A stretch of 64,000 nt of DNA from Muricauda sp. MAR_2010_75 (GTDB lineage: Bacteria; Bacteroidota; Bacteroidia; Flavobacteriales; Flavobacteriaceae): assembly GCF_000745185.1 (NCBI RefSeq), contig NZ_JQNJ01000001.1, forward strand, positions 3,144,501 through 3,208,500, given 5' to 3'. Within the stretch, counting starts at the first letter, position 1. Every line of letters starts with the position of its first letter. Positions 22,979-60,834 of the stretch are shown in pieces. The notes under the pieces were generated by a model, which worked only from the letters and a program-made list of their open reading frames with translations, was not told the origin of the DNA and did no database searches. The translations under genes and the position numbers were made by a program.

Positions 22979-23070
22979 TAAAGTTAGTTTCTAAAGCTTT
23001 TTGCCAAAATGATATCGGTCAGTATTATGATTTCAATCATTCCCATAACCTATCTCAAGTTTTACATTTG
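22979..23070. promoter_or_regulatory. Divergent promoter pair with two TGAY-N4-RTCA sites (coiled-coil gene / mla operon)
   Basis: Site 1, TGATATCGGTCA (23010-23021), ends 23 bp from the minus-strand box TAACTTTA (22979-22986). Site 2, TGATTTCAATCA (23028-23039), ends 23 bp from the plus-strand box TACATTTG (23063-23070, full -7 match). Each divergent gene thus has its own activator site at about -41. Confidence 0.75.
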
Positions 23071-23098
23071 AAAATGATTAGCTTCAAATGGTGAAATC

Positions 23099-23878
23099 AT
23101 GCATGCGTCACAGGTTACTTTTCGAATACGAAAGTTCTTCATGGAAATTGGGGAGCTGTCTTATTTTGCCGGACGTTTCTTTAAAGTTGGTTTTAGGCCA
23201 CCCTTTGAGTTCAAGGAGTTTTTACGGCAGTGCTATAATATGGGGAACCGGTCCTTGATTTTGGTGTTGGTCACGGGATTTATCATTGGCTTGGTACTCA
23301 CCCTGCAATCGCGCCCCACCCTTATTGAATTTGGAGCGGTTTCGTGGATGCCCAATATGGTTGGCATTTCCATTGTAAGGGAACTTGGACCTGTGATTAC
23401 GGCCTTGGTCTGCGCGGGACGTATTGCATCGGGTATTGGAGCTGAATTAGGGTCAATGCGGGTAACGGAACAGATTGATGCCATGGAGGTCTCAGGGACC
23501 AATCCTTTCAAATTTTTGGTCGTTACAAGAATCATGGCCACTACATTGATGCTTCCCCTTCTTGTTATTTTGGGTGATGCCGTCGCACTGTACGGTTCGG
23601 CACTTGTGGAGAATTTTAAGGGCAATGTCTCCTTTCAACTGTATTTTAATGCCGTTTTCAGTGCCCTTTCCTATGGAGATTTGATTCCTGCTACCATAAA
23701 GTCGTTCTTTTTTGGTTTTGCCATTGGTCTTGTAGGATGTTACAAAGGATATTACAGCAAAAAGGGAACTGCAGGGGTAGGTATGGCAGCAAATACCGCC
23801 GTGGTCTTTACTTCCATGTTGTTGTTTGTGATTGACTTTATTGCCGTGTTTATATCCGATATTTTTTATGAACTATGA
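23099..23878 (+). CDS. mlaE: MlaE-family lipid ABC transporter permease
   Basis: 259 aa integral membrane protein. The family core is plain: SLILVLVTGFIIGLVLTLQ, then VRELGPVITALVCAGRIASG with the conserved E-L-G-P, and MRVTEQIDAMEVSGTNPFKF, the coupling segment. MlaE-type permeases work with an MlaF ATPase and an MCE (MlaD) protein to move phospholipids between membranes; the two partners follow directly. The ATPase start overlaps this stop (ATGATG/TGA). Island palindrome 23028-23039 is placed to activate the operon. Confidence 0.92.
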   Translation: MHASQVTFRIRKFFMEIGELSYFAGRFFKVGFRPPFEFKEFLRQCYNMGNRSLILVLVTGFIIGLVLTLQSRPTLIEFGAVSWMPNMVGISIVRELGPVITALVCAGRIASGIGAELGSMRVTEQIDAMEVSGTNPFKFLVVTRIMATTLMLPLLVILGDAVALYGSALVENFKGNVSFQLYFNAVFSALSYGDLIPATIKSFFFGFAIGLVGCYKGYYSKKGTAGVGMAANTAVVFTSMLLFVIDFIAVFISDIFYEL

Positions 23879-24660
23879 TGTCAAGCGAAAAGAAAATAGC
23901 AACAACAACTGAATCGGGGCAACCTCTTAAAGAAGTCATTCATATTGAGGGATTGTACAAAAGCTTTGGCGACAACCATGTACTCAATGGTTTTAACATG
24001 AAGCTGCATGAAGGGGAAAATTTGGTGGTCATGGGCAAATCGGGCTCAGGCAAATCTGTAATGATTAAATGTCTTGTTGGTCTGGTAAAGCCTGATGCTG
24101 GTAAAATCATTGTCATGGGGCAGGATATCAGCGCACTCAACCAAGAAGCACTTGATGTTCTAAGGGCGGATATCGGATTTTTGTTTCAGGGAAGCGCGCT
24201 ATACGATTCCATGACTGTTAGGGAAAACCTGGAATTCCCCATGAGAAGGCACCAAAAGAAAATGGGTGTGGTTACGGATACTACACCCTTTGTTCTGGAG
24301 GCTCTTAAAAGTGTTGGGTTGGAACATACCATGGATTTAATGCCCGAAGAACTTTCAGGCGGTATGAAAAGGAGAGTAGCCTTGGCCCGGGCCATCATAT
24401 TGCGGCCTAAAATCATCTTATATGATGAGCCCACAAGTGGCTTGGACCCCATCACCTCAAAGGAAATCATTGAACTCATGCGCAACATCCAAAAGGAATA
24501 CGGCACGTCTTCATTGATCATCACGCACGATGTGGACTGTGCCCGGGTGATTTCTGAACGGATGATTTTATTGGTTGATGGCGTTAATTATGCTGAGGGC
24601 ACTTTCCGGGATCTTACCAATTCCAATGACCCAAAAGTGCAGGCATTCTTTAAAAAATAA
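23875..24660 (+). CDS. mlaF: MlaF-family ABC transporter ATP-binding protein
   Basis: 261 aa. Walker A GKSGSGKS, Q-loop (FLFQGSALYDSMTV), signature LSGGMKRR, Walker B ILYDEPTSGLDP and the H-switch (ITHDV) are intact. The Q-loop text and signature are typical for the Mla/Mkl subfamily. ATG 23875 and 23878 are both possible. It energises the lipid transporter with MlaE (upstream, overlapping) and MCE protein (downstream, 4 bp). Confidence 0.93.
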   Translation: MMSSEKKIATTTESGQPLKEVIHIEGLYKSFGDNHVLNGFNMKLHEGENLVVMGKSGSGKSVMIKCLVGLVKPDAGKIIVMGQDISALNQEALDVLRADIGFLFQGSALYDSMTVRENLEFPMRRHQKKMGVVTDTTPFVLEALKSVGLEHTMDLMPEELSGGMKRRVALARAIILRPKIILYDEPTSGLDPITSKEIIELMRNIQKEYGTSSLIITHDVDCARVISERMILLVDGVNYAEGTFRDLTNSNDPKVQAFFKK

Positions 24661-24664
24661 TGAA

Positions 24665-26546: not shown

Positions 26547-26555
26547 ACGCGCTTT

Positions 26556-27926
26556 ATGAAAAAACTTAAAGTCCATTTTTTAGGGGGGTCGGAAACCGTA
26601 ACGGGATCCAAGTTCTATTTAGAAACAGAAGGCATTAACATATTGGTGGATTGCGGGGTGTTTCAAGGAGCAAAGGAGCTTCGGCAACAAAATTGGCAGC
26701 CCCTTCCCATAGATGTTCCCAAAATTGATGCGGTATTATTGACCCACGGGCATTTGGATCATTGCGGGTATCTACCCCTTTTGGTAAAACAAGGTTTTAA
26801 GGGAAATATTCTTGGTACGGCACCTACTTTGGCCATTGCAGAAATTATATTGAAGGACAGCGCCAAAATACATGAGGAAGAAGCTGAACGGGCCAATGAG
26901 GAAGGATATAGTAAACATAATCCTGCATTGCCGCTATACGATCAAGAGGATGTAAAGCGGACTTTGGGATATTTCAAGAGTATAGAAGAAGGGGAGAACA
27001 TTGAACTTGCTCCAGATTGTAGTGCATGTTTTAAATACAATGGACACATTATTGGGTCTACTTTTATTGAAATGAACATGCACGGGAAAGTATTTGTCTT
27101 TTCTGGTGATGTGGGCCGATTGAAAGATGACTTGTTGGATGCCCCTTTACAACCGGAATGGGCCGATTATCTTTTTGTGGAAAGCACCTACGGGGACAAA
27201 GATCATCCTGTGGAAGATTTGGAGGGTATTTTTAAGAATCTTGTTGAGCGGACGCTGCAAAACCGTGGTACTTTGATCATCCCATCCTTTGCGGTGGAGC
27301 GACTACAATCCTTAATGTATATGCTCTGGAAACTGTATGACAAAAACAAGATTCCCAACATTCCAATTTTTGTGGACAGTCCCATGGGCACCAATGTTTT
27401 GGAAGTATTTGGACGTTTTCCAGAGTGGCACAAGCTTTCCATGAGCGAATATCACAATATGTGCAATCATGTAAACTTGGTGAGTTCCTACCGTGAAACA
27501 TGGGAAACCATTGATGACCCAAGGCCCAAGGTTGTGATTGCTGGAAGTGGTATGGTCACAGGGGGCAGGGTGCTTACCTATTTAAAGCAATTGATGGATT
27601 TAAAATCCACTACCGTTTTGCTTGTGGGGTATCAGGCTGAAGAGACCCGCGGCAGAAAGTTATTGGAAGGTGCCCAAGAATTGAAGATGTTTGGAAAATA
27701 TATACCTGTGAACGCAAAAATTGAACACTTGGAAAGTTTGTCCGCGCATGCAGACCAAAGTGAACTACTACATTGGATGGGGCAAATCAAGAATATTCCC
27801 GAAAAGGTGTTTTTGGTACATGGGGAAACGGATGCATTGCATGCCTTCAAAGACAAAATACACGAAACGTATGGCTGGCGTTGCCATATTCCCTCACTTC
27901 ACGAAATGGTTGAAATCCTGTTATAG
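26556..27926 (+). CDS. Beta-CASP metallo-beta-lactamase-fold RNA hydrolase
   Basis: 456 aa. The metallo-beta-lactamase motif HGHLDH (His64, His66, Asp68, His69) and the beta-CASP features (FAVERLQSLMYML, then VIAGSGMVTGGRVL and the C-terminal SAHAD motif) are complete. Relatives are CPSF-73-like RNases that cut or trim RNA. No KH domain is visible. It is the last gene of the mla operon and overlaps the convergent upp gene by 6 bp. In an island operon it could help RNA turnover under stress; that is inference. Confidence 0.9.
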   Translation: MKKLKVHFLGGSETVTGSKFYLETEGINILVDCGVFQGAKELRQQNWQPLPIDVPKIDAVLLTHGHLDHCGYLPLLVKQGFKGNILGTAPTLAIAEIILKDSAKIHEEEAERANEEGYSKHNPALPLYDQEDVKRTLGYFKSIEEGENIELAPDCSACFKYNGHIIGSTFIEMNMHGKVFVFSGDVGRLKDDLLDAPLQPEWADYLFVESTYGDKDHPVEDLEGIFKNLVERTLQNRGTLIIPSFAVERLQSLMYMLWKLYDKNKIPNIPIFVDSPMGTNVLEVFGRFPEWHKLSMSEYHNMCNHVNLVSSYRETWETIDDPRPKVVIAGSGMVTGGRVLTYLKQLMDLKSTTVLLVGYQAEETRGRKLLEGAQELKMFGKYIPVNAKIEHLESLSAHADQSELLHWMGQIKNIPEKVFLVHGETDALHAFKDKIHETYGWRCHIPSLHEMVEILL

Positions 27927-28646: not shown

Positions 28647-29168
28647 TTATTTTGCAAAATCCAAGACAAAAGACCGTACCGCATCCCAATCGGTGTACTC
28701 ATGGTCTTTGGACGTATCTGTGGACCCACCTTCTTTTTTGGCAATCATACGCATGATAAGCTTTTTAAAGTAGTCGTATTGGGTGTATTTAAGTGCACCC
28801 GCAATATGATGGGTTTCATTGGGTTTCCATCCGGTTTGGTCCAAAAAGTGCTGAGCTATTTTCTCCACTTCCTTATGTTCTTCTTCGATATCTGATGCTA
28901 TGGCCATGGAAACCGAAAAGAAAGCGGAATGCTTAATATTGAGTTCATCCAGATTTTTCATGATGTAATCCTTGATGGAGGAATGGTACTTCTGGATGTG
29001 GATGGAACTCCCAATTAGCACAGCATCAAATTTTTCTGGAGATGGTGGGTCTTCGGTGGCATCGGCAATCACTACGCTATGGTTCTTTGCTTGTAGGACC
29101 TCTTCCATAAAACGGGAAATTTTTCGGGTCTGTCCTTCACTTGTGGCGTAAACGATAAGAATTTTCAT
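28647..29168 (-). CDS. Flavodoxin-domain protein (HemG/protoporphyrinogen oxidase-like)
   Basis: 173 aa. The FMN phosphate-binding loop is YATSEGQTRKIS near residue 8, followed by the fold GSSIHIQKYHSSIKDYIM seen in HemG-type flavodoxins. C-terminal helices follow. HemG converts protoporphyrinogen to protoporphyrin with quinones as acceptors, also without oxygen. A general redox flavoprotein is equally possible. Island palindrome 29227-29238 lies 23 bp from its -7 box. Confidence 0.8.
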   Translation of the reverse strand: MKILIVYATSEGQTRKISRFMEEVLQAKNHSVVIADATEDPPSPEKFDAVLIGSSIHIQKYHSSIKDYIMKNLDELNIKHSAFFSVSMAIASDIEEEHKEVEKIAQHFLDQTGWKPNETHHIAGALKYTQYDYFKKLIMRMIAKKEGGSTDTSKDHEYTDWDAVRSFVLDFAK

Positions 29169-29195: not shown

Positions 29196-29304
29196 TAAAT
29201 GTAAGAGCTGTTGTTTGTTGCTGAAATGATAATCGTCAATTGAATAATTAAAGCATTGTACTGATGCAGGTCATTTCATTAACAGCTCATTATCAGGAAC
29301 TTTA
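29196..29304. promoter_or_regulatory. Divergent promoters with two TGAY-N4-RTCA sites (flavodoxin / bactofilin-like)
   Basis: TGATAATCGTCA (29227-29238) ends 23 bp from minus-strand box TACATTTA (29196-29203) for the flavodoxin-upp unit. TGATGCAGGTCA (29262-29273) ends 23 bp from plus-strand GAACTTTA (29297-29304, weaker) for the bactofilin-like gene. Confidence 0.65.
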
Positions 29305-29328: not shown

Positions 29329-30513
29329 ATGAAAACACAACTAGTCTATTTGGCAGTTTTTGCACCATTGTTCTTATGGGGGCAATTCAAGGCAGATGAA
29401 ACCATTACCATTGTAGAAAATCAGGATGATGATTTCTATGCAGCAGGCGAAATCATTAACATGGAATCCAAAATCAATGGTGATTTTGTGGTGGCCGGAA
29501 GTGAAATCAGGGTTCGTGATAGCTTACAACAAGACCTTTTGGTGGCTGGGGGCGATGTATTCATTATGGGACCCATTGGGGATGATGTCAGGGCCATGGC
29601 CGGAAAATTGACCATTTCAAATGACGTGGCTGACGATGTCATTGTTTTTGGTGGAGAGGTATTTGTTACGGACAATGCCAAAATACATGGAAATCTGGTG
29701 AATTTCTCAGGAAAAATTACTGTGGAAGGTGATGTAGACGGTATGATAAAAGCCTATGGCGGGGACTTGGATTTTAATGGTTCGGTTGGTCAGGGTTTGG
29801 AAGTCTACGGAGGAGATATCAGTATTGATGGGCTAATACATGGAAAATCCAAAATTGTGGCCGATGAGGTTACGATAGGGGACAGAGCCCAATTTTATGG
29901 AGATGTGGACTACTGGACAGAGTCTGGGGAAATCGATTTTGGCAATGCATTGATCGGGTCTACTGCAAATTTCAATGAGGACTTAATGAAAGAACGCGAA
30001 GAATTTTCTTGGAAAGCACTTGGAATTGCATCATTGGGTTTCTGGATTTTTTATGTGCTATCTGCATTCTTGGTATTGTTGGTATTGCACTTGGCCTTTA
30101 GAAAATATTTTAAAAGAGCTGCTGACAGCTTGGAAGGTAATTTTTGGAAAGGATTTGGGTATGGACTGATTTACATTATTGGGTTTCCATTAGTGATAGG
30201 GCTTACATTTGCCTTAATTATTGGTATTCCCATTGGATTGTTTTTATTGTCATTCTACTTGTTCAGCATCTTTTTTGGACATTTGGTTGCCGCATCCATT
30301 GCTTCGCATTATTGGAATTTGGTGAACAAAGGTTCCATGGGTTTTTGGGGCGTTTTATTCCTTTCTCTTGCCATTGCAATGGTTCTACGATTGTTGACAT
30401 TGGTGCCTTTCCTCGGGTTTTTGCTTTCCGTTGTGGTATTGGCCATTGCTTATGGAGGAATTATGTTACTCTTTGTACAGAAGAAAGGTAATGGAAAAGC
30501 AGTTGTAGCATGA
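29329..30513 (+). CDS. Bactofilin-like (polymer-forming) membrane protein
   Basis: 394 aa. Signal peptide (to about LWGQF), then ~190 residues of short, regular beta turns (ADDVIVFGGEVFVTDNAKIHGNL, VEGDVDGMIKAYGGDLDFNG) typical of a right-handed beta-helix of the bactofilin/polymer-forming cytoskeletal type. The C-terminal third has about five or six hydrophobic helices. It is probably an envelope protein exposing the beta-helix outside the inner membrane. Promoter has an island site (29262-29273). A truncated hydrolase frame overlaps its stop codon. Confidence 0.72.
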   Translation: MKTQLVYLAVFAPLFLWGQFKADETITIVENQDDDFYAAGEIINMESKINGDFVVAGSEIRVRDSLQQDLLVAGGDVFIMGPIGDDVRAMAGKLTISNDVADDVIVFGGEVFVTDNAKIHGNLVNFSGKITVEGDVDGMIKAYGGDLDFNGSVGQGLEVYGGDISIDGLIHGKSKIVADEVTIGDRAQFYGDVDYWTESGEIDFGNALIGSTANFNEDLMKEREEFSWKALGIASLGFWIFYVLSAFLVLLVLHLAFRKYFKRAADSLEGNFWKGFGYGLIYIIGFPLVIGLTFALIIGIPIGLFLLSFYLFSIFFGHLVAASIASHYWNLVNKGSMGFWGVLFLSLAIAMVLRLLTLVPFLGFLLSVVVLAIAYGGIMLLFVQKKGNGKAVVA

Positions 30514-31656: not shown

Positions 31657-31783
31657 TCAATGTATTGTGTATTATATTCATTTACAATGATTTATGTCAA
31701 TTTTGCTTTTAACTGAAGGGTTAAAAAAATCTTGTAAAACTGATTTAAATCATTATTTGTTTGCCCAAAGCATATTAACTTGC
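31657..31783. promoter_or_regulatory. Two TGAY-N4-RTCA sites: PepSY/dodecin promoter and an orphan plus-strand promoter
   Basis: TGATTTATGTCA (31688-31699) ends 23 bp from minus-strand TACATTGA (31657-31664). TGATTTAAATCA (31741-31752), a perfect palindrome, ends 23 bp from plus-strand TAACTTGC (31776-31783). The second would start a transcript near 31787, where no obvious gene follows. Confidence 0.6.
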
Positions 31784-32205: not shown

Positions 32206-32248
32206 TGATGTAAGTCATTACCCTTCCTATCATGGAGTTGTATTTTTA
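32206..32248 (+). promoter_or_regulatory. TGAY-N4-RTCA site and -7 box of the ribonucleotide reductase gene
   Basis: TGATGTAAGTCA (32206-32217) ends 23 bp before TATTTTTA (32241-32248). Transcription would begin near 32252, which rules out starts upstream and supports ATG 32273. Confidence 0.7.
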
Positions 32249-32272
32249 AGGTTGGCACAAAACCTTAGTAGT

Positions 32273-34824: not shown

Positions 34825-34931
34825 CTAAGATATGCGAGAAGCAATTCCCCTAAAATGATGCCGATCAGATAAACCCACTTTCCTAGAATGATGAAGGTCA
34901 TTTCCTATACAGGGATTGTACAATACATTGT
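34825..34931. promoter_or_regulatory. Divergent promoters with two TGAY-N4-RTCA sites (FMN lipoprotein / lipoprotein 34980)
   Basis: TGATGCCGATCA (34856-34867) ends 23 bp from minus-strand TATCTTAG (34825-34832). TGATGAAGGTCA (34889-34900) ends 23 bp from plus-strand TACATTGT (34924-34931). Confidence 0.65.
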
Positions 34932-34979
34932 ATCGAAATAGTTAAGTAACCCGTGTGTATTTCATTAAAAGAAGTTGTT

Positions 34980-37391: not shown

Positions 37392-37414
37392 CACAAAAGG
37401 GTTTTACTTTCAAT

Positions 37415-37457
37415 TAAAGGTAGCACCAATCCCCATTGTTTTTTATGACAATGATCA
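37415..37457 (-). promoter_or_regulatory. TGAY-N4-RTCA site and -7 box of the terB-like/deoC/deoD operon
   Basis: TGACAATGATCA (37446-37457) ends 23 bp from minus-strand box TACCTTTA (37415-37422). The site lies between convergent-reading neighbours, so this direction is the only one served. Confidence 0.65.
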
Positions 37458-37880: not shown

Positions 37881-37954
37881 ACAAGGTAGTTTACAGGCAG
37901 TTCCCAATAAATGATTTGCGTCATTACACAACACAATGCTTAACGATAGCTTTG
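37881..37954. promoter_or_regulatory. Bidirectional promoter sharing one TGAY-N4-RTCA site
   Basis: The single palindrome TGATTTGCGTCA (37912-37923) is 23 bp from plus-strand TAGCTTTG (37947-37954, full match; AhpD-like gene) and 23 bp from minus-strand TACCTTGT (37881-37888, weaker; small lipoprotein). Confidence 0.7.
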
Positions 37955-38977: not shown

Positions 38978-39051
38978 TAAAGGTCGTTCCTACAAAAGGG
39001 TTTTGAAATGATTTACGTCATGGAAAAAGTTGTTTGCAGCTTCTACATTTG
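38978..39051. promoter_or_regulatory. Bidirectional promoter sharing one TGAY-N4-RTCA site (usp1 / WG-repeat gene)
   Basis: TGATTTACGTCA (39009-39020) is 23 bp from plus-strand TACATTTG (39044-39051, full match) and 23 bp from minus-strand GACCTTTA (38978-38985, weaker). Confidence 0.7.
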
Positions 39052-40412: not shown

Positions 40413-40470
40413 TAAATATAAATATGTATGGCACTTTCTCCCATGATCTAAATCAGTTTTTTTAACTTTA
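40413..40470. promoter_or_regulatory. TGAY-N4-RTCA site between terB-like 2 and the sensor kinase; possible autoregulation
   Basis: TGATCTAAATCA (40444-40455) ends 23 bp from minus-strand TATATTTA (40413-40420). Toward the kinase the only -7 candidate is TAACTTTA (40463-40470), just 7 bp from the palindrome, so a bound regulator would overlap that promoter and may repress it. Confidence 0.55.
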
Positions 40471-40474: not shown

Positions 40475-42004
40475 GTGAAACTTTTAGAAAAAAACGAAGT
40501 ACTCAGAATCTTAACGGAAGTCATTTCCGAAGGAATTCTTATTGTTGATGATCAACAGTTTATTGTGGCCAGCAATGCGGTGGCCAACCGAATGTTTGGT
40601 TACCCGGAAGGGGAGCTAAGTGGCAAGCCCTTGGAAATTTTGATTCCCAAAAATATAAGGGGTCAGCATAAGGGAGACGCAGGGGCATTCATACAAAAAG
40701 GACGCAGAAGGAAGATGGGACAGGGCTTGGATCTTGTTGGCCTTCAGAGAGATGGTGGAGAGTTTCCCCTTGAAATAAGCCTTAATCCGTTTACACTGCT
40801 GCAAAGGAGGTATGTAATGGCCATTATTGTGGATATTTCGGAGCGAAAAAAATCTGAGCAGACTATAGACCATTGGTTTCAGGTCTTTAACGAGTCCCTT
40901 AACGAGATCTATATTTTTGAGGCGGAATCCCTTGTGTTCATTAATGTAAACCGTGGTGCACAGCTTAATTTGGGGTATACCATGAAGGAATTGAACCAGA
41001 TGTCCATTCTCGACATTAAAACCGATCTTACCCAAAAAAGCTTTCAAAAATTAATATCCCCACTGGTCAATAAAACGAGGGAAAAGGTTGATTTTGAGAC
41101 CATACACCAGCGAAAAGACGGCACTACATATCCCGTGGAAGTGCACTTGCAATTGTCTTCAATAGGCAAAAAGGAAGTATTTCTTGCCATAGTGTTAGAC
41201 ATTACGGAGCGGAAAAATTATACCCAGCATTTGGAGAACACGGTGGAAGAACGCACCGAACAGCTCAGGGAAGCTCTAAAAGCAGAAAAGCAGTTGAATG
41301 AACTAAAAACAAAGTTCCTGTCCTTGGTCTCACACGAGTTTAAAACACCCTTGTCCAGTATTTTGACCTCCAATTCCTTGCTCTCTAAATATACCAAGAC
41401 CGATCAACAGGAAAAACGGGATAAGCACATCAATACCATTAAGGAAAAAGTAAAGTATTTAGACAACATTCTTACCGACTTCCTGTCCATAGAACGGTTG
41501 GATACGGGCAAGGTAAAATACAATATCAGCACTTTTCCCCTGAGCAAAATCATCAATGAAGTGGTCTATAACTCCAACACGCTTTTAAAGGAAGGTCAGC
41601 GAATTCAGTACCCAAAAGATATTGATGGCATAACGGTATCCTTTGATGAAAAGATCATGGAACTGGCACTTTCCAATTTGTTGCACAACGCCATAAAGTA
41701 TTCCAAAGAAGATACCAATATAGAGCTTCGGGTTACAGAAGAGGATGAAAAACTGTATATTGATATCATTGATCAGGGGCTTGGCATTCCGGAGGAAGAT
41801 CAACCGTTTATTTTTGAGCGCTATTTTAGGGCAAGCAATGTGCTTACCGACCAAGGCACGGGAATTGGGCTTAATATTGTAAAGCAGCACATGCAAAATC
41901 TAGAAGCCGACATTAGTTTTAAAAGTGAATCGGGTGTTGGCTCAACATTTACATTGACCATACCCAAAAACAAAAGTGAAGATGAAAAAAATTCTATTGG
42001 TTGA
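40475..42004 (+). CDS. PAS-PAS sensor histidine kinase (no transmembrane segment)
   Basis: 509 aa, soluble. GTG 40475 is the only start that keeps the first PAS domain whole. PAS1 (~10-125) has a FixL-like text with His65 in IRGQHKGDAGAF, at the position of the heme-ligand His in FixL; but the FixL arginine is replaced by Leu and this His occurs in many non-heme PAS domains. PAS2 (~130-250) is followed by a coiled coil, the H-box with His287 (SHEFKTP), then N, G1 and G2 boxes (HNAIKYS, DQGLGIP, GTGIGL). It overlaps its response regulator gene, so the two form a two-component pair. Confidence 0.92.
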   Translation: MKLLEKNEVLRILTEVISEGILIVDDQQFIVASNAVANRMFGYPEGELSGKPLEILIPKNIRGQHKGDAGAFIQKGRRRKMGQGLDLVGLQRDGGEFPLEISLNPFTLLQRRYVMAIIVDISERKKSEQTIDHWFQVFNESLNEIYIFEAESLVFINVNRGAQLNLGYTMKELNQMSILDIKTDLTQKSFQKLISPLVNKTREKVDFETIHQRKDGTTYPVEVHLQLSSIGKKEVFLAIVLDITERKNYTQHLENTVEERTEQLREALKAEKQLNELKTKFLSLVSHEFKTPLSSILTSNSLLSKYTKTDQQEKRDKHINTIKEKVKYLDNILTDFLSIERLDTGKVKYNISTFPLSKIINEVVYNSNTLLKEGQRIQYPKDIDGITVSFDEKIMELALSNLLHNAIKYSKEDTNIELRVTEEDEKLYIDIIDQGLGIPEEDQPFIFERYFRASNVLTDQGTGIGLNIVKQHMQNLEADISFKSESGVGSTFTLTIPKNKSEDEKNSIG

Positions 42005-43028
42005 GGACGATACCTCTTTACGGGAAAATGTAGAGGAACTCCTAGATCTATCTGGTTTCCAGGTTTTTTCAACCCCAAATGGGCGACTGGCCCACGAAAT
42101 TGCCAAAAAAGAAGGGCCCGATATTGTGCTATGTGATATTATGATGCCCGAGGTTGATGGTTACGAGGTACTTGAGCAGTTTTCCTCTTGCGAGAGTACC
42201 AGACACATCCCCTTTATTTTCGTTTCGGCAAAAACAGAACGCAATGACGTAAGAAGAGGGATGGACCTTGGAGCCGACGATTATTTGACCAAGCCTTTTG
42301 AAGAGGACGAACTGCTGAGGGCCATTCACACCCGTTTGGAAAAAGCAACACAGTTGGAAAGCGTTTTTTCAAAACGCAATGAGCACAACAAACAGCACGA
42401 TATACGATCGTTGAATGAGCTGAAGAATTTTTTTGATGACCATGGACAACTGTTTTCCTTTAAGAAAGATGAGACCATCTTTACAATGGGAGAACACTCC
42501 AATATGGTGTACCTTGTTCTAAAAGGAGTGGCAAAGTGTTGTGGATTGGATGAGGAGGGCAAGGAACTTATCACTTCTGTGTATTCAGAGGACGACTTTT
42601 TGGGATTCACCTCCCTGACAGAAAATCTTCCGTACCGCGAATATGCCATAGCCATTGAAGATGTGGAACTTGCGGGAATCTCCAAAACCCATGTCAAGTC
42701 CATTCTAGAAGAAAATCAAAGTGTTTCTTTGGAATTGCTCAATGTTATGGCCGAAGATTTGGTTCACATAAAAAAACAGTTGTTGCAAATGGCCTATAGT
42801 TCTGTCCGAAAAAAAACGGCCCAGACCCTGTTGCTGTATGCCCAGGCAATGCATAAAGGCAAGGAAGGCCCATTAAAAATTGCAAGAAGCGATTTGGCAG
42901 GGGTGGCCGGTATTGCTACGGAAAGCTTGATCAGAACCTTGTCCGATTTCAAGAATGAAGGTCTTATTGCCATTGAAAACCGTAATATTAGGGTCTTGGA
43001 CAAAGAGGCCCTCGCCCAAGTCCACTAG
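41982..43028 (+). CDS. Response regulator with receiver domain fused to CRP/FNR-type module (REC-cNMP-HTH)
   Basis: 348 aa from ATG 41982 (GTG 41976 adds two residues). Receiver 1-120 has Asp8/Asp9 (EDD), the phospho-acceptor Asp52 (LCDIMMP) and a conserved Lys (TKPF). Residues ~150-265 are a cNMP-binding/CRP barrel; ~275-340 are a CRP-type winged HTH. In the recognition helix (GIATESLIRTLSDF) Glu314 and Arg318 match the E and R with which CRP/FNR contact the TGA core. No FNR-type cysteine cluster. It is the best candidate to bind the TGAY-N4-RTCA sites. Most response regulators carry LuxR, OmpR or NtrC outputs; REC-CRP is rare. Confidence 0.92.
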   Translation: MKKILLVEDDTSLRENVEELLDLSGFQVFSTPNGRLAHEIAKKEGPDIVLCDIMMPEVDGYEVLEQFSSCESTRHIPFIFVSAKTERNDVRRGMDLGADDYLTKPFEEDELLRAIHTRLEKATQLESVFSKRNEHNKQHDIRSLNELKNFFDDHGQLFSFKKDETIFTMGEHSNMVYLVLKGVAKCCGLDEEGKELITSVYSEDDFLGFTSLTENLPYREYAIAIEDVELAGISKTHVKSILEENQSVSLELLNVMAEDLVHIKKQLLQMAYSSVRKKTAQTLLLYAQAMHKGKEGPLKIARSDLAGVAGIATESLIRTLSDFKNEGLIAIENRNIRVLDKEALAQVH

Positions 43029-43035: not shown

Positions 43036-43077
43036 TGATATTTATCATTCCATCTTTTTTTTGGAATGATAAACTTG
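43036..43077 (+). promoter_or_regulatory. TGAY-N4-RTCA site and -7 box upstream of USP 2
   Basis: TGATATTTATCA (43036-43047), a near-perfect palindrome, ends 22 bp before TAAACTTG (43070-43077). This is the only case with 22 rather than 23 bp. Confidence 0.65.
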
Positions 43078-43960: not shown

Positions 43961-44003
43961 TGACCAAAATCATTTCTTACTGTTTTCAGCACCGCTATCT
44001 TTG
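43961..44003 (+). promoter_or_regulatory. TGAY-N4-RTCA site and -7 box of the USP 3-6 operon
   Basis: TGACCAAAATCA (43961-43972) ends 23 bp before TATCTTTG (43996-44003, full match). Transcription would start near 44009, so ATG 44019 is the start and the TTG at 44001 cannot be. Confidence 0.75.
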
Positions 44004-44018
44004 GAAAAAGAGGTCACT

Positions 44019-44864: not shown

Positions 44865-44884
44865 ACATTTAAAAAATCACAAAG

Positions 44885-46598: not shown

Positions 46599-46616
46599 CA
46601 CAGAAACCATAAAGAC

Positions 46617-47816: not shown

Positions 47817-47890
47817 GCAATTTATGAAATCCCATCTTTTTGGGAATTGATGAAAATCATGGTATAAGATTGGAGCCAGATGTAGCTTTG
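47817..47890. promoter_or_regulatory. Bidirectional promoter sharing one TGAY-N4-RTCA site (thioredoxin / USP 7)
   Basis: TGATGAAAATCA (47848-47859) is 23 bp from plus-strand TAGCTTTG (47883-47890, full match) and 23 bp from minus-strand TAAATTGC (47817-47824, weaker). Confidence 0.7.
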
Positions 47891-48749: not shown

Positions 48750-48759
48750 CCAATAAGCC

Positions 48760-49575
48760 ATGTTACAGATTCTAGTGCCCACCGATTTTTCCAACAATTC
48801 ATACAATGCACTGTTTTATGCCGCCCAACTGTTTAAAGAGGAGAAATGTAATTTTCATATTGTGAATGTTTGCGGCAACGAAGGCGATTCAAAAATTGAG
48901 GAAGCCAAGATAGAGTCCGCCCAAGGTCTTGACTCCATCTGCCATAGGCTAATCCGGGATGTTGGGAATAACAAAAAACACCAACTGAAAAAAGTCTCGT
49001 TATGCTCAAGTGTAACCAAAGGTATTTGCGATTATGCCGAAAAGCATAAGGTAGGCCTCATGGTAATCGGAAATAAAGCAAAAGAGGAGGTAAAACATAT
49101 TTTGTTCGGTACAAATGCCATGCAATTGGTGCGGGAAGTAACCACTTGCCCCATTCTCATCGTTCCCTTGGAAATTGACTTTAAAAAGGTGGAAAAGATT
49201 GCTTTTATCTCCAACTACGCCAACCCTATTTCAAAGGAGAACATCCACACCCTGCAATTTTTTCAAACAGTGACGCAAAGTGCCATGGTGCCCATGAGCA
49301 TTGATGATGGAAAATTGGATAAAGATGGTCTGGAAAACAAGAACAGTTTTTTTAAAGCGTTTTCCAAAATTATTTCCAAAGAGGTGGTATTGCCCGTTTT
49401 TGAAGATAAAACAAAGACCATTTTAGAGTTTGTGGACCTTTGGAGCATAGATATGCTCTGTATGGTGTATTATCCGCATCATTTTTTCTTGGAGTTTATC
49501 GGCAATGGAATCATTAAGGAATTGAACACTAAACTATCCGTCCCTTTTTTGATTTTGCCCAATCGGGCAAATTGA
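48760..49575 (+). CDS. Universal stress protein with degenerate ATP motif (USP 8 of 9)
   Basis: 271 aa, shortest of the array. The nucleotide motif is broken: IGNKAKEEVKHILFGTN lacks the second glycine of G-x2-G. Domain 2 has LCMVYYPHHFFLEFIGNGIIKE. It may have lost ATP binding, as UspA-type (non-ATP) proteins have. Its stop codon TGA is also the first half of the palindrome serving USP 9. Confidence 0.88.
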   Translation: MLQILVPTDFSNNSYNALFYAAQLFKEEKCNFHIVNVCGNEGDSKIEEAKIESAQGLDSICHRLIRDVGNNKKHQLKKVSLCSSVTKGICDYAEKHKVGLMVIGNKAKEEVKHILFGTNAMQLVREVTTCPILIVPLEIDFKKVEKIAFISNYANPISKENIHTLQFFQTVTQSAMVPMSIDDGKLDKDGLENKNSFFKAFSKIISKEVVLPVFEDKTKTILEFVDLWSIDMLCMVYYPHHFFLEFIGNGIIKELNTKLSVPFLILPNRAN

Positions 49576-49615
49576 CCTAAATCATGGCATAGGATAACAA
49601 CCTGATGTAGCTTTA
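49573..49615 (+). promoter_or_regulatory. TGAY-N4-RTCA site and -7 box of the USP 9/baeRF-like unit
   Basis: TGACCTAAATCA (49573-49584) ends 23 bp before TAGCTTTA (49608-49615). The TGA of the site is the stop codon of USP 8. Confidence 0.7.
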
Positions 49616-50942: not shown

Positions 50943-50985
50943 TGACTTATATCATTTCATAGCAACCAACCAAACCGTATTTTCA
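50943..50985 (+). promoter_or_regulatory. TGAY-N4-RTCA site and -7 box of the coiled-coil/Hsp20 unit
   Basis: TGACTTATATCA (50943-50954) ends 23 bp before TATTTTCA (50978-50985, 4 of 6 informative bases). Confidence 0.6.
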
Positions 50986-51422: not shown

Positions 51423-51483
51423 TGTTCATCTTTCTACGTTGATCAATTTAAAAACTAAGTTCATTAATCTAAAACCTATCATT

Positions 51484-53530: not shown

Positions 53531-54940
53531 AAGTGGGCTCAACAATTTGGCAAAGCCCTCTATCAACTTTTTGAACCAATGCCTTTGTTTGTGTTTTTCA
53601 TAATCCGCAAGAATGACGGATTTTTCACAATCGTTCAAAAAATTGGATTTCATTTGTTGGCAAAGGGCTTCGTCATACACAAAGACTTGGGCCTCGTAAT
53701 TTTGTTGTAGACTTCTATTGTCCAAGTTGGCCGTCCCAATACTGGCTATCTCATCATCGCACAGCATTACTTTACTATGCAGAAAACCATCGGCATACAT
53801 GTAAATTTTGATGCCTGCCTTTAGGTAGGATTCAAAGTAGGCCCTAACGCACCAATCCACCAGTTTGATATCTGTTGTGGTAGACATGAGAATCCTGACA
53901 TCCACCCCGCTCAATGCCGCGGTTATAAGGGCCTGTAAAATGGCATGGTTGGGTATAATGTATGGGTTTACAATGTAGAGATACCTTTCTGCGCTGTTTA
54001 TGATGGAAAAATAGGCCTGCTCCATCACATCAAAATCATCATCCGGACCACTTGGGACGATTTGTAACGAATACCCTTTTTCTGAAGTGGGAAATGTTTT
54101 AAAGGTTGAAGTATCCACATTGTTTCCACTGGCGAGAAACCAATCTTTAATAAAGGTTTTGTTCAAGAAATCAACGGCCTCACCTTCAATTTTTAGATGC
54201 GTGTCGTGCCACTTGCCAAGAGCGGGGTCTCCCTTTAAATACTTATCGGATATATTTATTCCTCCGGTGAATCCCACTTTATTGTCAATTACGATGATTT
54301 TTCTATGGTTCCTGTAATTTAGGGAACTCAGGAACCTTCCAAATTTAAAGGGAAGAAACTGTGCAGTTTCCACACCTATTGCCTTAAGTTTTTTCAGATA
54401 TTTTTTGCTCAGCGAGTAACTGCCAATACCATCGTACAAAAGTCGGATGGTAACATTTTCAGCTATTTTCTTTTCAAATACTTGGAGAAGTTTGTTTGCC
54501 AATTCTCCGTCCTCAAAGATGTAATATTGAAGATGAATGTGTTCCTTGGCATCCTCCAATGCCTCAAAAATGCTCTCAAAGGTGTTTTTCCCATCTTTGA
54601 GCAATTCCAGATGATTATGGCAGGTAACCGGGCACCAAGAGGTATTGTTGATGAGTTGGGTAATTTTAAGTTTGTTTGCCGAAACCTCTGGAGCACAATG
54701 TATCGCACCGTTGTTATTTTTAGAGTCAAACCGGTTCTTTAAGGAAAACATCTTGTTTTTTCTCCTATTTCGTCCAAATAAGATGTAGAGAAGAACGCCT
54801 CCAACCGGAATTGTGAAAATGGCCAAAAGCCAAGCTAAGGTCTTACTTGGCCTGACCCCATTGAACAATAAGCTTACCACCATGGTCAAGGCAATAAGAA
54901 CATAAAGGGCAATAAGAATAGGTATCAGCATCTGATTCAT
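53525..54940 (-). CDS. cls: Cardiolipin synthase (phospholipase D type)
   Basis: 471 aa from ATG 54940. Two N-terminal transmembrane helices (PILIALYVLIALTMVVSLL and LAWLLAIFTIPVGGVLLYILF) then two HKD motifs: HRKIIVID with GFTGG, and HSKVMLCDD with GTANLDNRS. It condenses phosphatidylglycerol into cardiolipin. An earlier codon at 54958 is excluded because the -7 box is at 54945-54952. The start would leave almost no leader; ATG 54931 is an alternative. Confidence 0.92.
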   Translation of the reverse strand: MNQMLIPILIALYVLIALTMVVSLLFNGVRPSKTLAWLLAIFTIPVGGVLLYILFGRNRRKNKMFSLKNRFDSKNNNGAIHCAPEVSANKLKITQLINNTSWCPVTCHNHLELLKDGKNTFESIFEALEDAKEHIHLQYYIFEDGELANKLLQVFEKKIAENVTIRLLYDGIGSYSLSKKYLKKLKAIGVETAQFLPFKFGRFLSSLNYRNHRKIIVIDNKVGFTGGINISDKYLKGDPALGKWHDTHLKIEGEAVDFLNKTFIKDWFLASGNNVDTSTFKTFPTSEKGYSLQIVPSGPDDDFDVMEQAYFSIINSAERYLYIVNPYIIPNHAILQALITAALSGVDVRILMSTTTDIKLVDWCVRAYFESYLKAGIKIYMYADGFLHSKVMLCDDEIASIGTANLDNRSLQQNYEAQVFVYDEALCQQMKSNFLNDCEKSVILADYEKHKQRHWFKKLIEGFAKLLSPLL

Positions 54941-54944
54941 AAAA

Positions 54945-54987
54945 CAAATATAAATCACTTAGGGCTGGCTTACATTGAGATGCGTCA
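54945..54987 (-). promoter_or_regulatory. TGA-N6-TCA site and -7 box of cls
   Basis: TGAGATGCGTCA (54976-54987) ends 23 bp from minus-strand TATATTTG (54945-54952, full match). The site fits TGA-N6-TCA but has G instead of Y at position 4. Confidence 0.6.
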
Positions 54988-57820: not shown

Positions 57821-60574
57821 TCAATTATTGTTCAAGGCCGCTTGTGCTGCGGCAACCCGGGCAATGGGCACCCTAAAGGGTGAGCAGCTCACATAGTTCA
57901 TGCCCACTTTTTGACAGAAGCCCACGGAGCTGGGTTCGCCACCATGTTCCCCACAAATGCCTACCTTAAGGCCTGGATGGCTTTCCCTACCCCTTTGGGT
58001 GCCTAGCTCAATTAATTGTCCAACACCTTCTTGATCCAATATTTCAAAAGGATCTGCTTTTAGGATGCCTTTTTCAAGATATATAGGGAGAAATTTTCCT
58101 GAATCATCCCTTGAATAGCCAAAAGTCATCTGGGTAAGGTCATTGGTTCCAAAAGAGAAGAAATCGGCATTTTCCGCAATTTTATCTGCGATCAACGTGG
58201 CCCTTGGGGTTTCCATCATTGTACCAACGGTATACTCCACCGTATCCTTGCGTTTTTTGAAAACTTCTTCAGCTGTTGCATCAATGATTGCTTTTTGCTG
58301 CATAAACTCTTCCACGGTGCCTACCAATGGCACCATGATTTCAGGTTTAACGGTGATACCATCCTTTTTCACTTTTAGGGCAGCTTCCAAAATGGCTTGT
58401 GTCTGCATCTCGGTAATTTCAGGATAGGTATTTCCCAATCTACATCCTCTATGGCCCATCATAGGGTTAAACTCTTCCAATTCGGCCACTTTGCTTTTTA
58501 CGGCAGCTAAGGAAATATGCAATTCTTCGGCCAATTCTTTTTGTGTGGCCAATTGATGGGGCACAAACTCGTGCAAAGGTGGATCCAATAGTCGTATTGT
58601 TACAGGATAGCCTTCCATCGCCCTAAAGATTCCCTCAAAGTCGTTGCGTTGCATGGGCAATAATTCTTTCAAGGCTTGTTTACGACCTTTAATGGTATCG
58701 GCCAAAATCATTTCCCGCATGGCCTTGATACGGTCCACTTCAAAGAACATGTGCTCAGTACGGGTCAAACCGATACCTTTTGCCCCAAAATTCCGTGCAA
58801 TAAGGGCATCTTTAGGGGTGTCGGCATTGGTACGTACCTCCATGGTGGCATAATTATCGGATAGTTCCATCAACTCGGCAAATTCACCGCTTAATTCGGG
58901 TTCCTTGGTGGCAACTTTACCTTCCAAGATATTTCCTGTGGAGCCATTGATGGATATCCAATCTCCTTCATGGTATTCGTGGTCACCCACTTTAAGGGTT
59001 CTTGTCTTATAGTTGATTTTTAAGGCACCCGCTCCAGAGACACAGCATTTACCAATACCTCTGGCAACCACAGCGGCGTGGGAGGTCATTCCCCCACGGG
59101 CGGTAACAATACCTTTGGCTATGTTCATACCTTCTACATCTTCGGGAGAGGTTTCAATACGGACCAAAATACTGTTCTTGAATTTATCCGCCTCATCGGC
59201 AAAGAACACAATTTGACCAGTGGCCGCACCGGGAGAGGCAGGTAAACCTTGGGCAATGACATCGGCTTCTTGTAAAGCTTCAGGGTCAAAGATGGGATGC
59301 AAGAGTTCGTTCAGTTTGTTGGGCTCTATGCGCATCATTGCCTTTTTTTCATCTATAAGGCCTTCTTTGAGCAAATCCATGGCAATTTTTACCATGGCGG
59401 CACCGGTACGTTTACCGTTACGGGTCTGCAAGATCCAGAGTTTACCTTGTTGAATGGTAAATTCCATGTCTTGCATATCTTGGTAATGTGTTTCCAGTTT
59501 ATTTTGATATTCAAAAAGTTCCTTGTAGATATCGGGCATCAACTCTTCCAAGGAAGGATATTTTTCCTTGCGTTCTTCCTCCTCCACTTGGGCAAGTTTG
59601 GCCCAACGTTGGGAGCCTAACAAAGTAATTTGTTGCGGGGTTCGGACTCCGGCGACCACATCCTCACCTTGGGCGTTGATAAGATATTCCCCGTTGAACA
59701 CATTTTCCCCGGTCCCGGCATCCCGGGTAAAGCATACCCCGGTTCCCGAATCTTCTCCCATATTGCCAAATACCATGGCCTGAACGTTCACCGCGGTACC
59801 CCAATCTTCTGGGTATCCGTGCATTTTTCGGTAATAGATGGCGCGAGCACCGTTCCAACTATCGAATACGGCGGTAATGGCGCCCCAAAGCTGGTCCCAT
59901 GGATTGTTGGGGAAGGGTTTTCCGGTTCTTTTTTTAACAATATCCTTAAAATCGTATACCAGATCTTGAAGATCTTGAACAGTAAATTGGGTATCCTGCT
60001 CAATCCTTCTTTTATCCTTTAAATGATCGATAATCTCTTCAAAGGGATCAAGGTCATCCTTGGATTCTGGTTTGAGCCCCATGACCACACTACTGTACAT
60101 TTGAATGAATCGGCGGTAGGAATCCCAGGCAAAACGCTCATTGCCTGTCATTTTAATGACTCCTTTAATGGACTCATCGTTCAACCCAAGGTTGAGAACG
60201 GTATCCATCATGCCGGGCATGGAGACGCGTGCTCCAGAACGAACCGAAATCAATAAAGGATTATCATCATCGCCAAAAATGGCCCCCATGGTTTCTTCAA
60301 TGTTGGTAATTGCGGAACGTACCTCAGGTTCAATTCGAGCAATGACGGCTTCTTTGCCTTCTTCGTTGTATTGTGTACAAACTTCAGTGGTGATGGTAAA
60401 TCCGGGGGGCACAGGAATACCTATTCGGCTCATTTCAGCCAAATTGGCGCCCTTACCTCCCAATAGATTTTTCATTTTGCGACTCCCATCCGCTTTTTTG
60501 TTGCCGAAGGTGTACACGCTGAGGTTTTTATCAGTAAGTGTTTCCATTGTTTGTCTATTATGATTGTACTTCAT
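57821..60574 (-). CDS. ppdK: Pyruvate, phosphate dikinase
   Basis: 917 aa. N-terminal ATP-grasp starts KNLLGGKGANLAEM; the phospho-carrier His is in GGMTSHAAVVARGIG; the C-terminal PEP domain has GFTRTEHMF-like text (GLTRTEHMF) and CGEHGGEPSSV. It interconverts pyruvate, ATP and Pi with PEP, AMP and PPi, useful for PEP formation or for ATP-sparing glycolysis. Start 60574 fits the predicted transcription start near 60587; ATG 60547 is an alternative. Island site 60622-60633. Confidence 0.97.
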   Translation of the reverse strand: MKYNHNRQTMETLTDKNLSVYTFGNKKADGSRKMKNLLGGKGANLAEMSRIGIPVPPGFTITTEVCTQYNEEGKEAVIARIEPEVRSAITNIEETMGAIFGDDDNPLLISVRSGARVSMPGMMDTVLNLGLNDESIKGVIKMTGNERFAWDSYRRFIQMYSSVVMGLKPESKDDLDPFEEIIDHLKDKRRIEQDTQFTVQDLQDLVYDFKDIVKKRTGKPFPNNPWDQLWGAITAVFDSWNGARAIYYRKMHGYPEDWGTAVNVQAMVFGNMGEDSGTGVCFTRDAGTGENVFNGEYLINAQGEDVVAGVRTPQQITLLGSQRWAKLAQVEEEERKEKYPSLEELMPDIYKELFEYQNKLETHYQDMQDMEFTIQQGKLWILQTRNGKRTGAAMVKIAMDLLKEGLIDEKKAMMRIEPNKLNELLHPIFDPEALQEADVIAQGLPASPGAATGQIVFFADEADKFKNSILVRIETSPEDVEGMNIAKGIVTARGGMTSHAAVVARGIGKCCVSGAGALKINYKTRTLKVGDHEYHEGDWISINGSTGNILEGKVATKEPELSGEFAELMELSDNYATMEVRTNADTPKDALIARNFGAKGIGLTRTEHMFFEVDRIKAMREMILADTIKGRKQALKELLPMQRNDFEGIFRAMEGYPVTIRLLDPPLHEFVPHQLATQKELAEELHISLAAVKSKVAELEEFNPMMGHRGCRLGNTYPEITEMQTQAILEAALKVKKDGITVKPEIMVPLVGTVEEFMQQKAIIDATAEEVFKKRKDTVEYTVGTMMETPRATLIADKIAENADFFSFGTNDLTQMTFGYSRDDSGKFLPIYLEKGILKADPFEILDQEGVGQLIELGTQRGRESHPGLKVGICGEHGGEPSSVGFCQKVGMNYVSCSPFRVPIARVAAAQAALNNN

Positions 60575-60590
60575 GTTAAAAATCTACGTG

Positions 60591-60633
60591 TAAAAGTAGC
60601 AGCTATGTACACTTCAGAACATGATAAAAATCA
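60591..60633 (-). promoter_or_regulatory. TGAY-N4-RTCA site and -7 box of ppdK
   Basis: TGATAAAAATCA (60622-60633) ends 23 bp from minus-strand TACTTTTA (60591-60598). Confidence 0.65.
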
Positions 60634-60786
60634 GGGTTTTACCTATTAAGCTTTCATGCACCTAAATTCAAGGTGCTGCAAGAAGGGAAAACCTTTCATT
60701 TGTTATGAAGGGTTTGACTTTTAAGTGACGATAAGAAAAATATTGAAATGTAATAAGTTGTAAATCAAATAACTATAGGATTTATA

Positions 60787-60834
60787 TGATTTAGATCAGT
60801 AAAAACCAGCAATTTGGGAAAACACTGACATTTA
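60787..60834 (+). promoter_or_regulatory. TGAY-N4-RTCA site upstream of yceI, non-standard spacing
   Basis: TGATTTAGATCA (60787-60798) is a good palindrome, but the closest -7-like box, GACATTTA (60827-60834), is 28 bp away rather than 23. Either the true box was missed or the geometry differs. Confidence 0.45.

What the first reader, a model, noticed from the sequence alone, without database searches (positions are those of the whole stretch)
23010..60798. A hidden regulon: 21 copies of TGAY-N4-RTCA set a fixed distance from -7 boxes
Starts of the 12-bp sites: 23010, 23028, 29227, 29262, 31688, 31741, 32206, 34856, 34889, 37446, 37912, 39009, 40444, 43036, 43961, 47848, 49573, 50943, 54976, 60622, 60787. 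In 22 promoter directions the site ends exactly 23 bp from an 8-nt box resembling TAnnTTTG (6 of these match all six informative bases, 8 match five, 8 match four); one direction (43036) has 22 bp, one site (60787) does not fit. Centre-to-centre that is 33 bp, so the palindrome sits near -41, the class II position where CRP/FNR proteins activate. I found none at genes of the first 22 kb. A caveat: I chose the weaker boxes by position, so only the strong ones are independent evidence.
Basis: partly seen in the sequence, partly recalled or inferred. Interest (0 to 1): 0.95.

Follow-up and report, generated by a model that had tools for sequence, protein, structure and literature searches.

The report
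FixL-type switch running a dormancy-like regulon
In a flavobacterium, about twenty stress, energy and nucleotide gene units packed into 38 kb carry one switch sequence at one exact distance from promoter-like boxes, and the fused regulator encoded among them, probably driven by a predicted heme-based oxygen sensor, likely turns them on together.

Summary
Of 22 sites beyond 22 kb, 15 promoter directions match TAnnTTTG in at least 5 of 6 bases at exactly 23 bp; every other spacing from 12 to 35 has 0 or 1. Genome-wide, 16 of 34 pairs over 31 spacings lie at 23 bp; around 80 relatives of the local regulator, 132 of 176 over spacings 5-60. With starts mapped in a relative (box at -12 to -5) the site centres at -41.5, the class II position.

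A correction: the architecture is not private to this locus. Family genomes without the regulator have it too, and the genome's own FNR-like protein sits in a second site cluster. In this genus the two site sets differ at two central bases. The local subtype occurs 8 times in the genome, all in this block. In 13 other genus genomes with the regulator, 62 of 96 such sites lie within 30 kb of it (FNR-type: 3 of 78); three genomes without it have 3 in all.

The likely regulator is a receiver domain fused to a CRP/FNR protein, beside a FixL-like kinase: FixL-FixJ-FixK compressed into two proteins, over a DosR/lxa-like gene set. Binding, heme and oxygen response are untested.

The parts
41982..43028 (+). 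Likely regulator: receiver domain + cNMP-binding-type domain + Crp-type helix-turn-helix (ATG at 41982; ORF opens at GTG 41976)
   Evidence: Pfam Response_reg, cNMP_binding, HTH_Crp_2, all over cut-off; Asp54, Lys106, Glu316, Arg320 invariant in 18 homologues
40475..42004 (+). Sensor kinase, PAS-PAS-HisKA-HATPase
   Evidence: Pfam; homologue in 77 of 80 loci, directly upstream of the regulator in 75 by its coordinates
40475..40849 (+). First PAS domain, FixL-like, predicted to bind heme (His at residue 65)
   Evidence: 14 of 14 PDB matches at E <= 1e-4 are FixL, DosP/Ec DOS or 10jx; His in 66 of 70 kinases; model matches FixL first
23010..23021 (-). Site; box TAACTTTA (5 of 6) towards ORF 22569-22955
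23028..23039 (+). Site; box TACATTTG (6 of 6) at 23063-23070 towards MlaE-F-D, ATP-cone, beta-CASP genes
   Evidence: genes
29227..29238 (-). Site; box TACATTTA (5 of 6) towards HemG-like gene 28647-29168
29262..29273 (+). Site; box GAACTTTA (4 of 6) towards ORF 29329-30513
31688..31699 (-). Site; box TACATTGA (4 of 6) towards ORF 31084-31593
31741..31752 (+). Site; box TAACTTGC (4 of 6), no listed gene start within 200 nt
32206..32217 (+). Site; box TATTTTTA (5 of 6) towards B12-dependent ribonucleotide reductase 32252-34048
   Evidence: NrdJ_Z over cut-off
34856..34867 (-). Site; box TATCTTAG (5 of 6) towards FMN-binding protein 34099-34764
34889..34900 (+). Site; box TACATTGT (4 of 6) towards ORF 34953-35612
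37446..37457 (-). Site; box TACCTTTA (5 of 6) towards ORF 36987-37394, DeoC-like and nucleoside phosphorylase genes
37912..37923 (+). Site; box TAGCTTTG (6 of 6) towards AhpD/CMD-like gene 37986-38336; other side TACCTTGT (4 of 6) towards ORF 37482-37862
39009..39020 (+). Site; box TACATTTG (6 of 6) towards Usp gene 39008-39982 (listed start lies before the box, so the real start is probably later); other side GACCTTTA (4 of 6) towards ORF 38333-38953
40444..40455 (-). Site between ORF 39983-40444 and the kinase; box TATATTTA (5 of 6) towards the ORF, AACTTTTA (4 of 6) towards the kinase
43036..43047 (+). Site; 5-of-6 box at 22 bp towards Usp gene 43097-43939
43961..43972 (+). Site; box TATCTTTG (6 of 6) towards four Usp genes 44001-47471
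47848..47859 (+). Site; box TAGCTTTG (6 of 6) towards two Usp genes 47907-49575
49573..49584 (+). Site; box TAGCTTTA (5 of 6) towards Usp gene 49636-50487
50943..50954 (+). Site; box TATTTTCA (4 of 6) towards ORF 51018-51422, Hsp20 51439-51924 and following genes
54976..54987 (-). Site with one mismatch; box TATATTTG (6 of 6) towards phospholipase D-family gene 53525-54958
60622..60633 (-). Site; box TACTTTTA (5 of 6) towards pyruvate phosphate dikinase 57821-60574
60787..60798 (.). Palindrome without a fitting box
   Evidence: 1 of 6 on both sides
60826..60837 (+).

Best explanation
The palindromes sit 23 bp from promoter-like boxes, which would centre them at -41.5, and they are most likely class II operators of one local regulon that the fused receiver-CRP/FNR protein at 41982 is predicted to switch on when the neighbouring FixL-like kinase, probably a heme sensor, would phosphorylate it at low oxygen. 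Shown by sequence: the sites, the exact spacing, the domain fusion, the conserved kinase-regulator-Usp neighbourhood and the two operator subtypes. Inferred: that this protein binds the sites, that it activates, that phosphorylation at Asp54 drives it, and that heme and oxygen are the input. Mechanism proposed: a phosphorylated dimer takes the place of a -33 element and recruits polymerase to TAnnTTTG boxes. In this genus its operators have drifted from the FNR type (A and T at the outer bases of the central N4) to non-A/non-T, which would keep the stress regulon apart from the FNR/cbb3 regulon.
For: Spacing: 15 directions against 0-1; 16 of 34; 132 of 176; with TTTR box 313, no other spacing above 9. 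Position: box at -12 to -5 in a relative. Regulator; kinase homologue in 77 of 80 loci, Usp homologues in 76 of 80. Link of regulator to sites: local operator subtype 8 of 8 in this block of the genome; 26 of 35 near against 11 of 102 elsewhere in six related genomes; 62 of 96 within 30 kb of a regulator copy against 3 of 78 FNR-type in 13 genus genomes other than the own one; 104 local-type sites in 14 genomes with the regulator, 3 in 3 without, while FNR-type sites number 86 and 17. Sensor.
Against: The site and spacing also occur in family genomes without the regulator (6.6 per genome in 17, against 10.3 in 23 with it). Outside the window's clade most sites near the regulator look FNR-like (34 of 282 of the local subtype). 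The subtype was first seen in the window's own 12 sites. The three genus genomes without the regulator number only three, and at least part of the target island is gone in the one I looked at. The FixL Arg220 position is Leu in the window's kinase and in the 6 others of its clade that were extracted, so the ligand response may differ. The kinase gene itself has only a 4-of-6 box after its listed start, so autoregulation is not supported.
Confidence: 0.7

Rival explanations
1. The window operators belong to the genome's FNR-like protein (gene near 2166 kb, cysteine-rich start), or to it and the fused regulator together, and the fused regulator alone does not define the regulon.
For: Nearly the same recognition helix (GTATESAIRII against GIATESLIRTL); same palindrome and 23-bp spacing; family genomes without the regulator still have such pairs; near-regulator sites outside the clade look FNR-like; in G209, which lacks the regulator at E <= 1e-60, the site before the Usp8 orthologue is of FNR type, with a 4-of-6 box.
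Against: In this genus the two site sets differ at bases 4 and 7 and are apart in the genome; local-type sites nearly vanish where the regulator is missing while FNR-type sites do not.
Confidence: 0.2
2. The fused regulator does bind these sites but the signal is not oxygen: the PAS domain senses redox state, NO or CO, or another cofactor.
For: The FixL Arg220 position is Leu in 7 of 7 extracted kinases of this clade. PAS folds are alike: LOV domains also match the model lower down. No spectrum exists.
Against: By sequence the only PDB matches at E <= 1e-4 are FixL, DosP/Ec DOS and 10jx; the heme histidine is kept in 66 of 70 kinases, and Arg at the 220 position in 46 of 70; the gene set resembles low-oxygen regulons.
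Confidence: 0.3
3. The pattern is chance: short degenerate motifs in AT-rich DNA, with boxes chosen by position.
Against: 0 of 100 shuffles reach 25 palindromes; 15 directions at 23 bp against 0-1 elsewhere; 16 of 34 genome-wide; 132 of 176 in relatives, and 539 palindromes against 63-122 for five control half-sites.
Confidence: 0.01

Closest known systems
FixL-FixJ-FixK cascade of rhizobia; FixLJ controlling FixK in Burkholderia (passage of PMC6127331; the rhizobial case is recalled)
   Same: FixL-like first PAS with the heme histidine on a cytoplasmic-looking kinase; a receiver; a CRP/FNR protein with a TGAT-N4-ATCA-like operator.
   Different: Receiver and CRP/FNR protein are one polypeptide, so no intermediate fixK gene; class II promoters with TAnnTTTG; FixL Arg220 replaced by Leu in this clade.
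FNR of Escherichia coli and the FNR-like protein of this genome
   Same: TGA..TCA operator with centre at -41.5 by inference; Glu and Arg of the recognition helix kept (roles recalled).
   Different: No N-terminal cysteine cluster in the fused protein; central operator bases differ from the genome's FNR-type sites.
lxa locus of Burkholderia cenocepacia and DosR regulon of Mycobacterium tuberculosis
   Same: Many Usp genes with an Hsp20/alpha-crystallin-type chaperone and metabolic genes in one low-oxygen set (passages of PMC6127331).
   Different: DosR is a LuxR-type response regulator and lxa has been tied to an Anr/FixK-type protein (DosR type recalled; Anr/FixK). Low-oxygen induction is not known here.

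Membership tests
CRP/FNR superfamily | cNMP-binding-type domain followed by a Crp-type helix-turn-helix | tested here: met
   Pfam PF00027 and PF13545 over cut-off; phmmer to CRP/FNR structures, E 4e-16
CRP/FNR superfamily | Glu and Arg in the recognition helix that read TGA | tested here: met
   Glu316 and Arg320 invariant in 18 homologues; the roles are recalled
cAMP-dependent CRP | Glu and Arg of the phosphate-binding cassette | tested here: not met
   By reading the alignment to the M. tuberculosis CRP the two positions are Phe and Tyr; which residues hold cAMP is recalled
FNR (Fe-S) | N-terminal cysteine cluster | tested here: not met
   No cysteine in the stretch between receiver and cNMP-type domain; the two cysteines further on are not invariant
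Response regulators | Receiver domain with acidic pocket, phospho-acceptor Asp, Ser/Thr and Lys | tested here: met
   Asp11, Asp12, Asp54, Ser84, Lys106 invariant in 18 homologues
FixL-type sensor kinases | Heme-PAS with proximal histidine | tested here: met
   His65 aligns with the FixL histidine and is kept in 66 of 70 kinases; heme binding itself not testable here
FixL-type sensor kinases | Regulatory Arg at the FixL 220 position | tested here: not met
   Leu in the window kinase; Arg in 46 of 70 kinases
FixL-type sensor kinases | Oxygen-controlled autophosphorylation | not testable with these tools
   Needs protein
FixL-FixJ-FixK cascade | Separate FixJ protein that switches on a fixK gene | tested here: not met
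   Receiver and CRP/FNR parts are one ORF
DosR/lxa-type low-oxygen regulons | Several Usp genes with an Hsp20 gene under one regulator | tested here: inconclusive
   Nine Usp genes and Hsp20 are present with sites upstream; control by one regulator is inferred
DosR/lxa-type low-oxygen regulons | Induction by low oxygen | not testable with these tools
   No expression data held

The most novel reading that the evidence does not exclude
A FixL-like sensor with a fused FixJ-FixK protein runs a dormancy-type regulon in Flavobacteriaceae. In one genus its operator has split from FNR's at two central bases, so one ancestral oxygen regulon became two insulated ones, and where the regulator was lost the surviving genes' operators went back toward FNR.
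Probability: 0.5. Interest if true: 0.82.

Novelty: new variant of a known kind. Interest (0 to 1): 0.74.

Why it matters
It would give Flavobacteriaceae a defined low-oxygen or dormancy-type regulon with sensor, regulator, operator and promoter geometry. It also gives a positional rule for these promoters (a CRP/FNR site ends 23 bp before TAnnTTTG), so regulons can be read from raw sequence in a poorly mapped group. The operator split between two CRP/FNR proteins within one genus, with species that lack one of them, would make the question of how paralogous regulators become insulated directly testable.

Tried and rejected
Chance was rejected. A motif private to the fused regulator was rejected: 124 of 196 order genomes have at least one exact 23-bp pair, while 29 of 196 have the regulator at E <= 1e-60. 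Control spacings 26-35 in the same 196 genomes, tallied for three families only (117 of 196 genomes; typed from the tables): own family f1 349 pairs at 23 bp against 17.8 per control spacing (40 genomes), f4 138 against 40.3 (38 genomes), f6 109 against 6.9 (39 genomes). The f4 excess is weaker because its control spacings are themselves well filled; not followed. cAMP control was rejected on pocket residues and FNR-type Fe-S control of the fused protein on missing cysteines. Covariation of operator subtype with regulator residues: outside the clade the best of 247 variable positions is residue 311 in the helix-turn-helix (p 4.5e-9 by locus), but relatedness was not corrected for and only 3 of the top 15 positions lie in that domain (24 of 247 overall), so I do not lean on it. 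Papers: PMC12531629, word search only, no hit for response regulator, receiver or Bacteroid. Searches for this system in print were (listings and abstract starts); none listed a receiver-CRP fusion or this regulon in Flavobacteriaceae, but the library lacks most subscription journals, so this is no proof of novelty. Not used: the second structure job and two of three protein searches. I did not check whether some of the genus genomes are the same as the six.

Full report
What is there. The window is G000:C1:3144501-3208500 of a single 4,424,696-base contig. The nearest named regulator homologues are from Muricauda, Allomuricauda and Flagellimonas, so this is a member of Flavobacteriaceae. One search finds 25 exact TGAY-N4-RTCA sites against 5.7 expected. 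Beyond 22 kb there are 21 exact sites plus 54976 with one mismatch. For these 22 sites in both directions the box at 23 bp matches TAnnTTTG in at least 5 of 6 bases in 15 directions and in 6 of 6 in 6; every other spacing from 12 to 35 gives 0 or 1.

Over spacings 8-38 the whole genome holds 34 exact palindrome-box pairs: 16 at 23 bp, 4 at 24 bp, 14 over the other 29 spacings. Around relatives of the regulator (the best 80 of 582 confirmed stretches, 1.5 Mb), 132 of 176 pairs over spacings 5-60 lie at 23 bp; with the box loosened to TTTR 313 lie at 23 bp and no other spacing exceeds 9. The palindrome occurs 539 times there, against 63-122 for five other half-sites of the same form. 312 such sites give (A/C)TGAY-N-W-W-T-RTCAT followed by a T-rich stretch; the first ATG lies 16-26 nt after the box in 200 of 324 sites, the window's 12 included.

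Promoter geometry. In Flavobacterium psychrophilum, where starts were mapped, TAnnTTTG lies at -12 to -5 (PMC9723704: outline, passages and part 1 of 2 of section 15 seen). A palindrome ending 23 bp before the box then spans -47 to -36, centre -41.5, the class II position of CRP and FNR (recalled). The conserved T after TCA and the T-rich bases fall where a -33 element would be, which fits an activator that replaces it; this is inference.

Regulator and sensor. The gene at 41982 encodes a receiver domain, a cNMP-binding-type domain and a Crp-type helix-turn-helix. Asp54, Lys106, Glu316 and Arg320 are invariant in 18 homologues, and there is no FNR-type cysteine cluster. The residues that would hold cAMP are Phe and Tyr by alignment. 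Just upstream is a PAS-PAS kinase; a kinase homologue is found in 77 of the 80 loci, directly upstream of the regulator in 75 by the coordinates printed. The first PAS domain's PDB matches at E <= 1e-4 are 14 sequences, all FixL, DosP/Ec DOS or 10jx, which titles a heme-binding PAS domain. The FixL heme histidine is kept in 66 of 70 kinases with a residue there (71 kinases extracted, one gap; ten of the 80 loci gave none). The predicted fold (mean pLDDT 83.9, 25 sequences) matches FixL first, with LOV domains further down. The FixL Arg220 position is Arg in 46 of 70, but Leu in the 7 extracted kinases of the window's clade (two further clade loci gave no kinase ORF) and in 4 others. Heme and oxygen remain predictions.

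Gene set. The boxes point at MlaE-F-D with ATP-cone and beta-CASP genes behind, a HemG-like flavodoxin (Pfam over cut-off, NCBIfam 141.7 bits against 142), a B12-dependent ribonucleotide reductase (NrdJ_Z over cut-off), an FMN-binding protein, a DeoC-like and a nucleoside phosphorylase gene, an AhpD-like protein, nine Usp genes, Hsp20 with a 2-hydroxyacid dehydrogenase behind, a phospholipase D-family protein, pyruvate phosphate dikinase and a YceI-like protein. Operon extents are inferred from gene order. Nine ORFs matched nothing in NCBIfam. Many Usp with an Hsp20 recalls the lxa locus and the DosR regulon, which passages of PMC6127331 compare with each other; the same passages mention FixLJ controlling FixK in Burkholderia.

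What goes against a simple reading. In 196 genomes of the order 29 have the regulator at E <= 1e-60, but 124 have at least one exact 23-bp pair. In the own family (40 genomes) there are 349 pairs at 23 bp against 17.8 per control spacing; genomes with the regulator average 10.3 (23 genomes), those without 6.6 (17 genomes). The own genome has three other Crp-type proteins over the Pfam cut-off. One, near 2166 kb, has a cysteine-rich start and a nearly identical recognition helix, and stands in a second site cluster whose neighbours I recognise by eye as cbb3-oxidase assembly and subunit genes (no family search was run on them).

Two operator subtypes. Counting from 0, bases 4 and 7 of the palindrome separate the sets. 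Fifteen own-genome sites in the nine stretches fetched outside the window have A4 in 11 and T7 in 13; the 12 window sites with a TAnnTTTR box have A4 in 0 and T7 in 4. A whole-genome search for non-A4, non-T7 sites (followed by T) with the box at 23 bp gives 8 matches, all in the block 3167528-3194115; A4/T7 sites number 8, none in the window. In six related genomes 26 of 35 sites near the regulator are of the local subtype against 11 of 102 elsewhere; 8 of those 11 lie in second clusters that I set apart after seeing them (8 of 15 there, 3 of 87 in the rest). In the second clusters, orthologues of MlaE, ORF 31084, the FMN-binding protein, the phosphorylase group and the AhpD-like gene sit away from the first regulator and keep sites upstream, though of mixed subtype (MlaE sites have A4); in one of the two genomes a second kinase-regulator pair (39-40% identical) lies among them. 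In the genus sample (17 genomes, 14 with the regulator) local-type sites number 104 in the 14 and 3 in the 3 without it; A4/T7 sites number 86 and 17. Leaving out the own genome, 62 of 96 local-type sites lie within 30 kb of a regulator copy against 3 of 78 A4/T7 sites. One regulator-free genome (G209) keeps a remnant from the ATP-cone gene to the phospholipase gene; there the site before the Usp8 orthologue is TGACAATTATCA (A4/T7, box 4 of 6) and that before Usp6 TGATATAAGTCA (A4 only, box 6 of 6), where the window has TGACCTAAATCA and TGATGAAAATCA. This is one genome and two sites.

Limits. The subtype was first seen in the 12 window sites, so its concentration there is by construction; its absence elsewhere in the genome and its behaviour in other genomes are not. 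Outside the clade 34 of 282 sites near the regulator are of the local subtype and most look like FNR sites, so in most of the family the two proteins may share operators. Absence of the regulator means no match at E <= 1e-60. Only three genus genomes lack it, and in the one inspected the kinase, regulator and several targets are gone too. P values here ignore relatedness.

Conclusion. The best explanation is a local regulon of a fused receiver-CRP/FNR activator fed by a FixL-like kinase, at class II promoters, in a stress and oxygen-limitation gene island. It is a new variant of the FixL-FixJ-FixK kind of circuit; its most interesting part is the operator split from FNR within one genus.

Noticed in passing
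G000:C1:2166056-2190178 (L146, L147): Second cluster of 23-bp-spaced sites, of the A4/T7 subtype, around a cysteine-rich FNR-like gene with Usp genes and, by eye, cbb3-oxidase genes.
   Followed up: partly
40475-40849: In the window's clade the residue at the FixL Arg220 position of the kinase PAS domain is Leu (7 of 7 extracted), in the same clade whose operators diverged.
   Followed up: partly
L156:8286-10317 and genus genomes: Relatives carry a second kinase-regulator pair or regulator copy (37-52% identical to the window's) inside a second cluster of local-type sites; the window genome has one copy at E <= 1e-60.
   Followed up: partly
G000:C1:3086492-3086704 (L142): A third CRP/FNR-type protein with a cysteine-rich start lies between a transporter-like ORF and a substrate-binding-protein-like ORF; its sites were not sought.
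   Followed up: no
family f4 genomes: Spacings 26-35 are well filled there (403 pairs in 38 genomes) although the reversed-pattern control is near zero in most, which suggests another fixed spacing in that family.
   Followed up: no
G045: A 2.0-Mb genome of another family has 9 exact 23-bp pairs, 7 of them with TCATATT after the palindrome, and no regulator at E <= 1e-60.
   Followed up: no
26556-27926: Beta-CASP protein whose best NCBIfam matches are Cas14 of type VII CRISPR and archaeal aCPSF1, both below cut-off; a 56% identical copy lies at G000:C1:27963-29324.
   Followed up: no
39008, 44001, 54958, 60859: Listed ORF starts lie before or inside the predicted boxes, so the real start codons are probably further downstream.
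   Followed up: no
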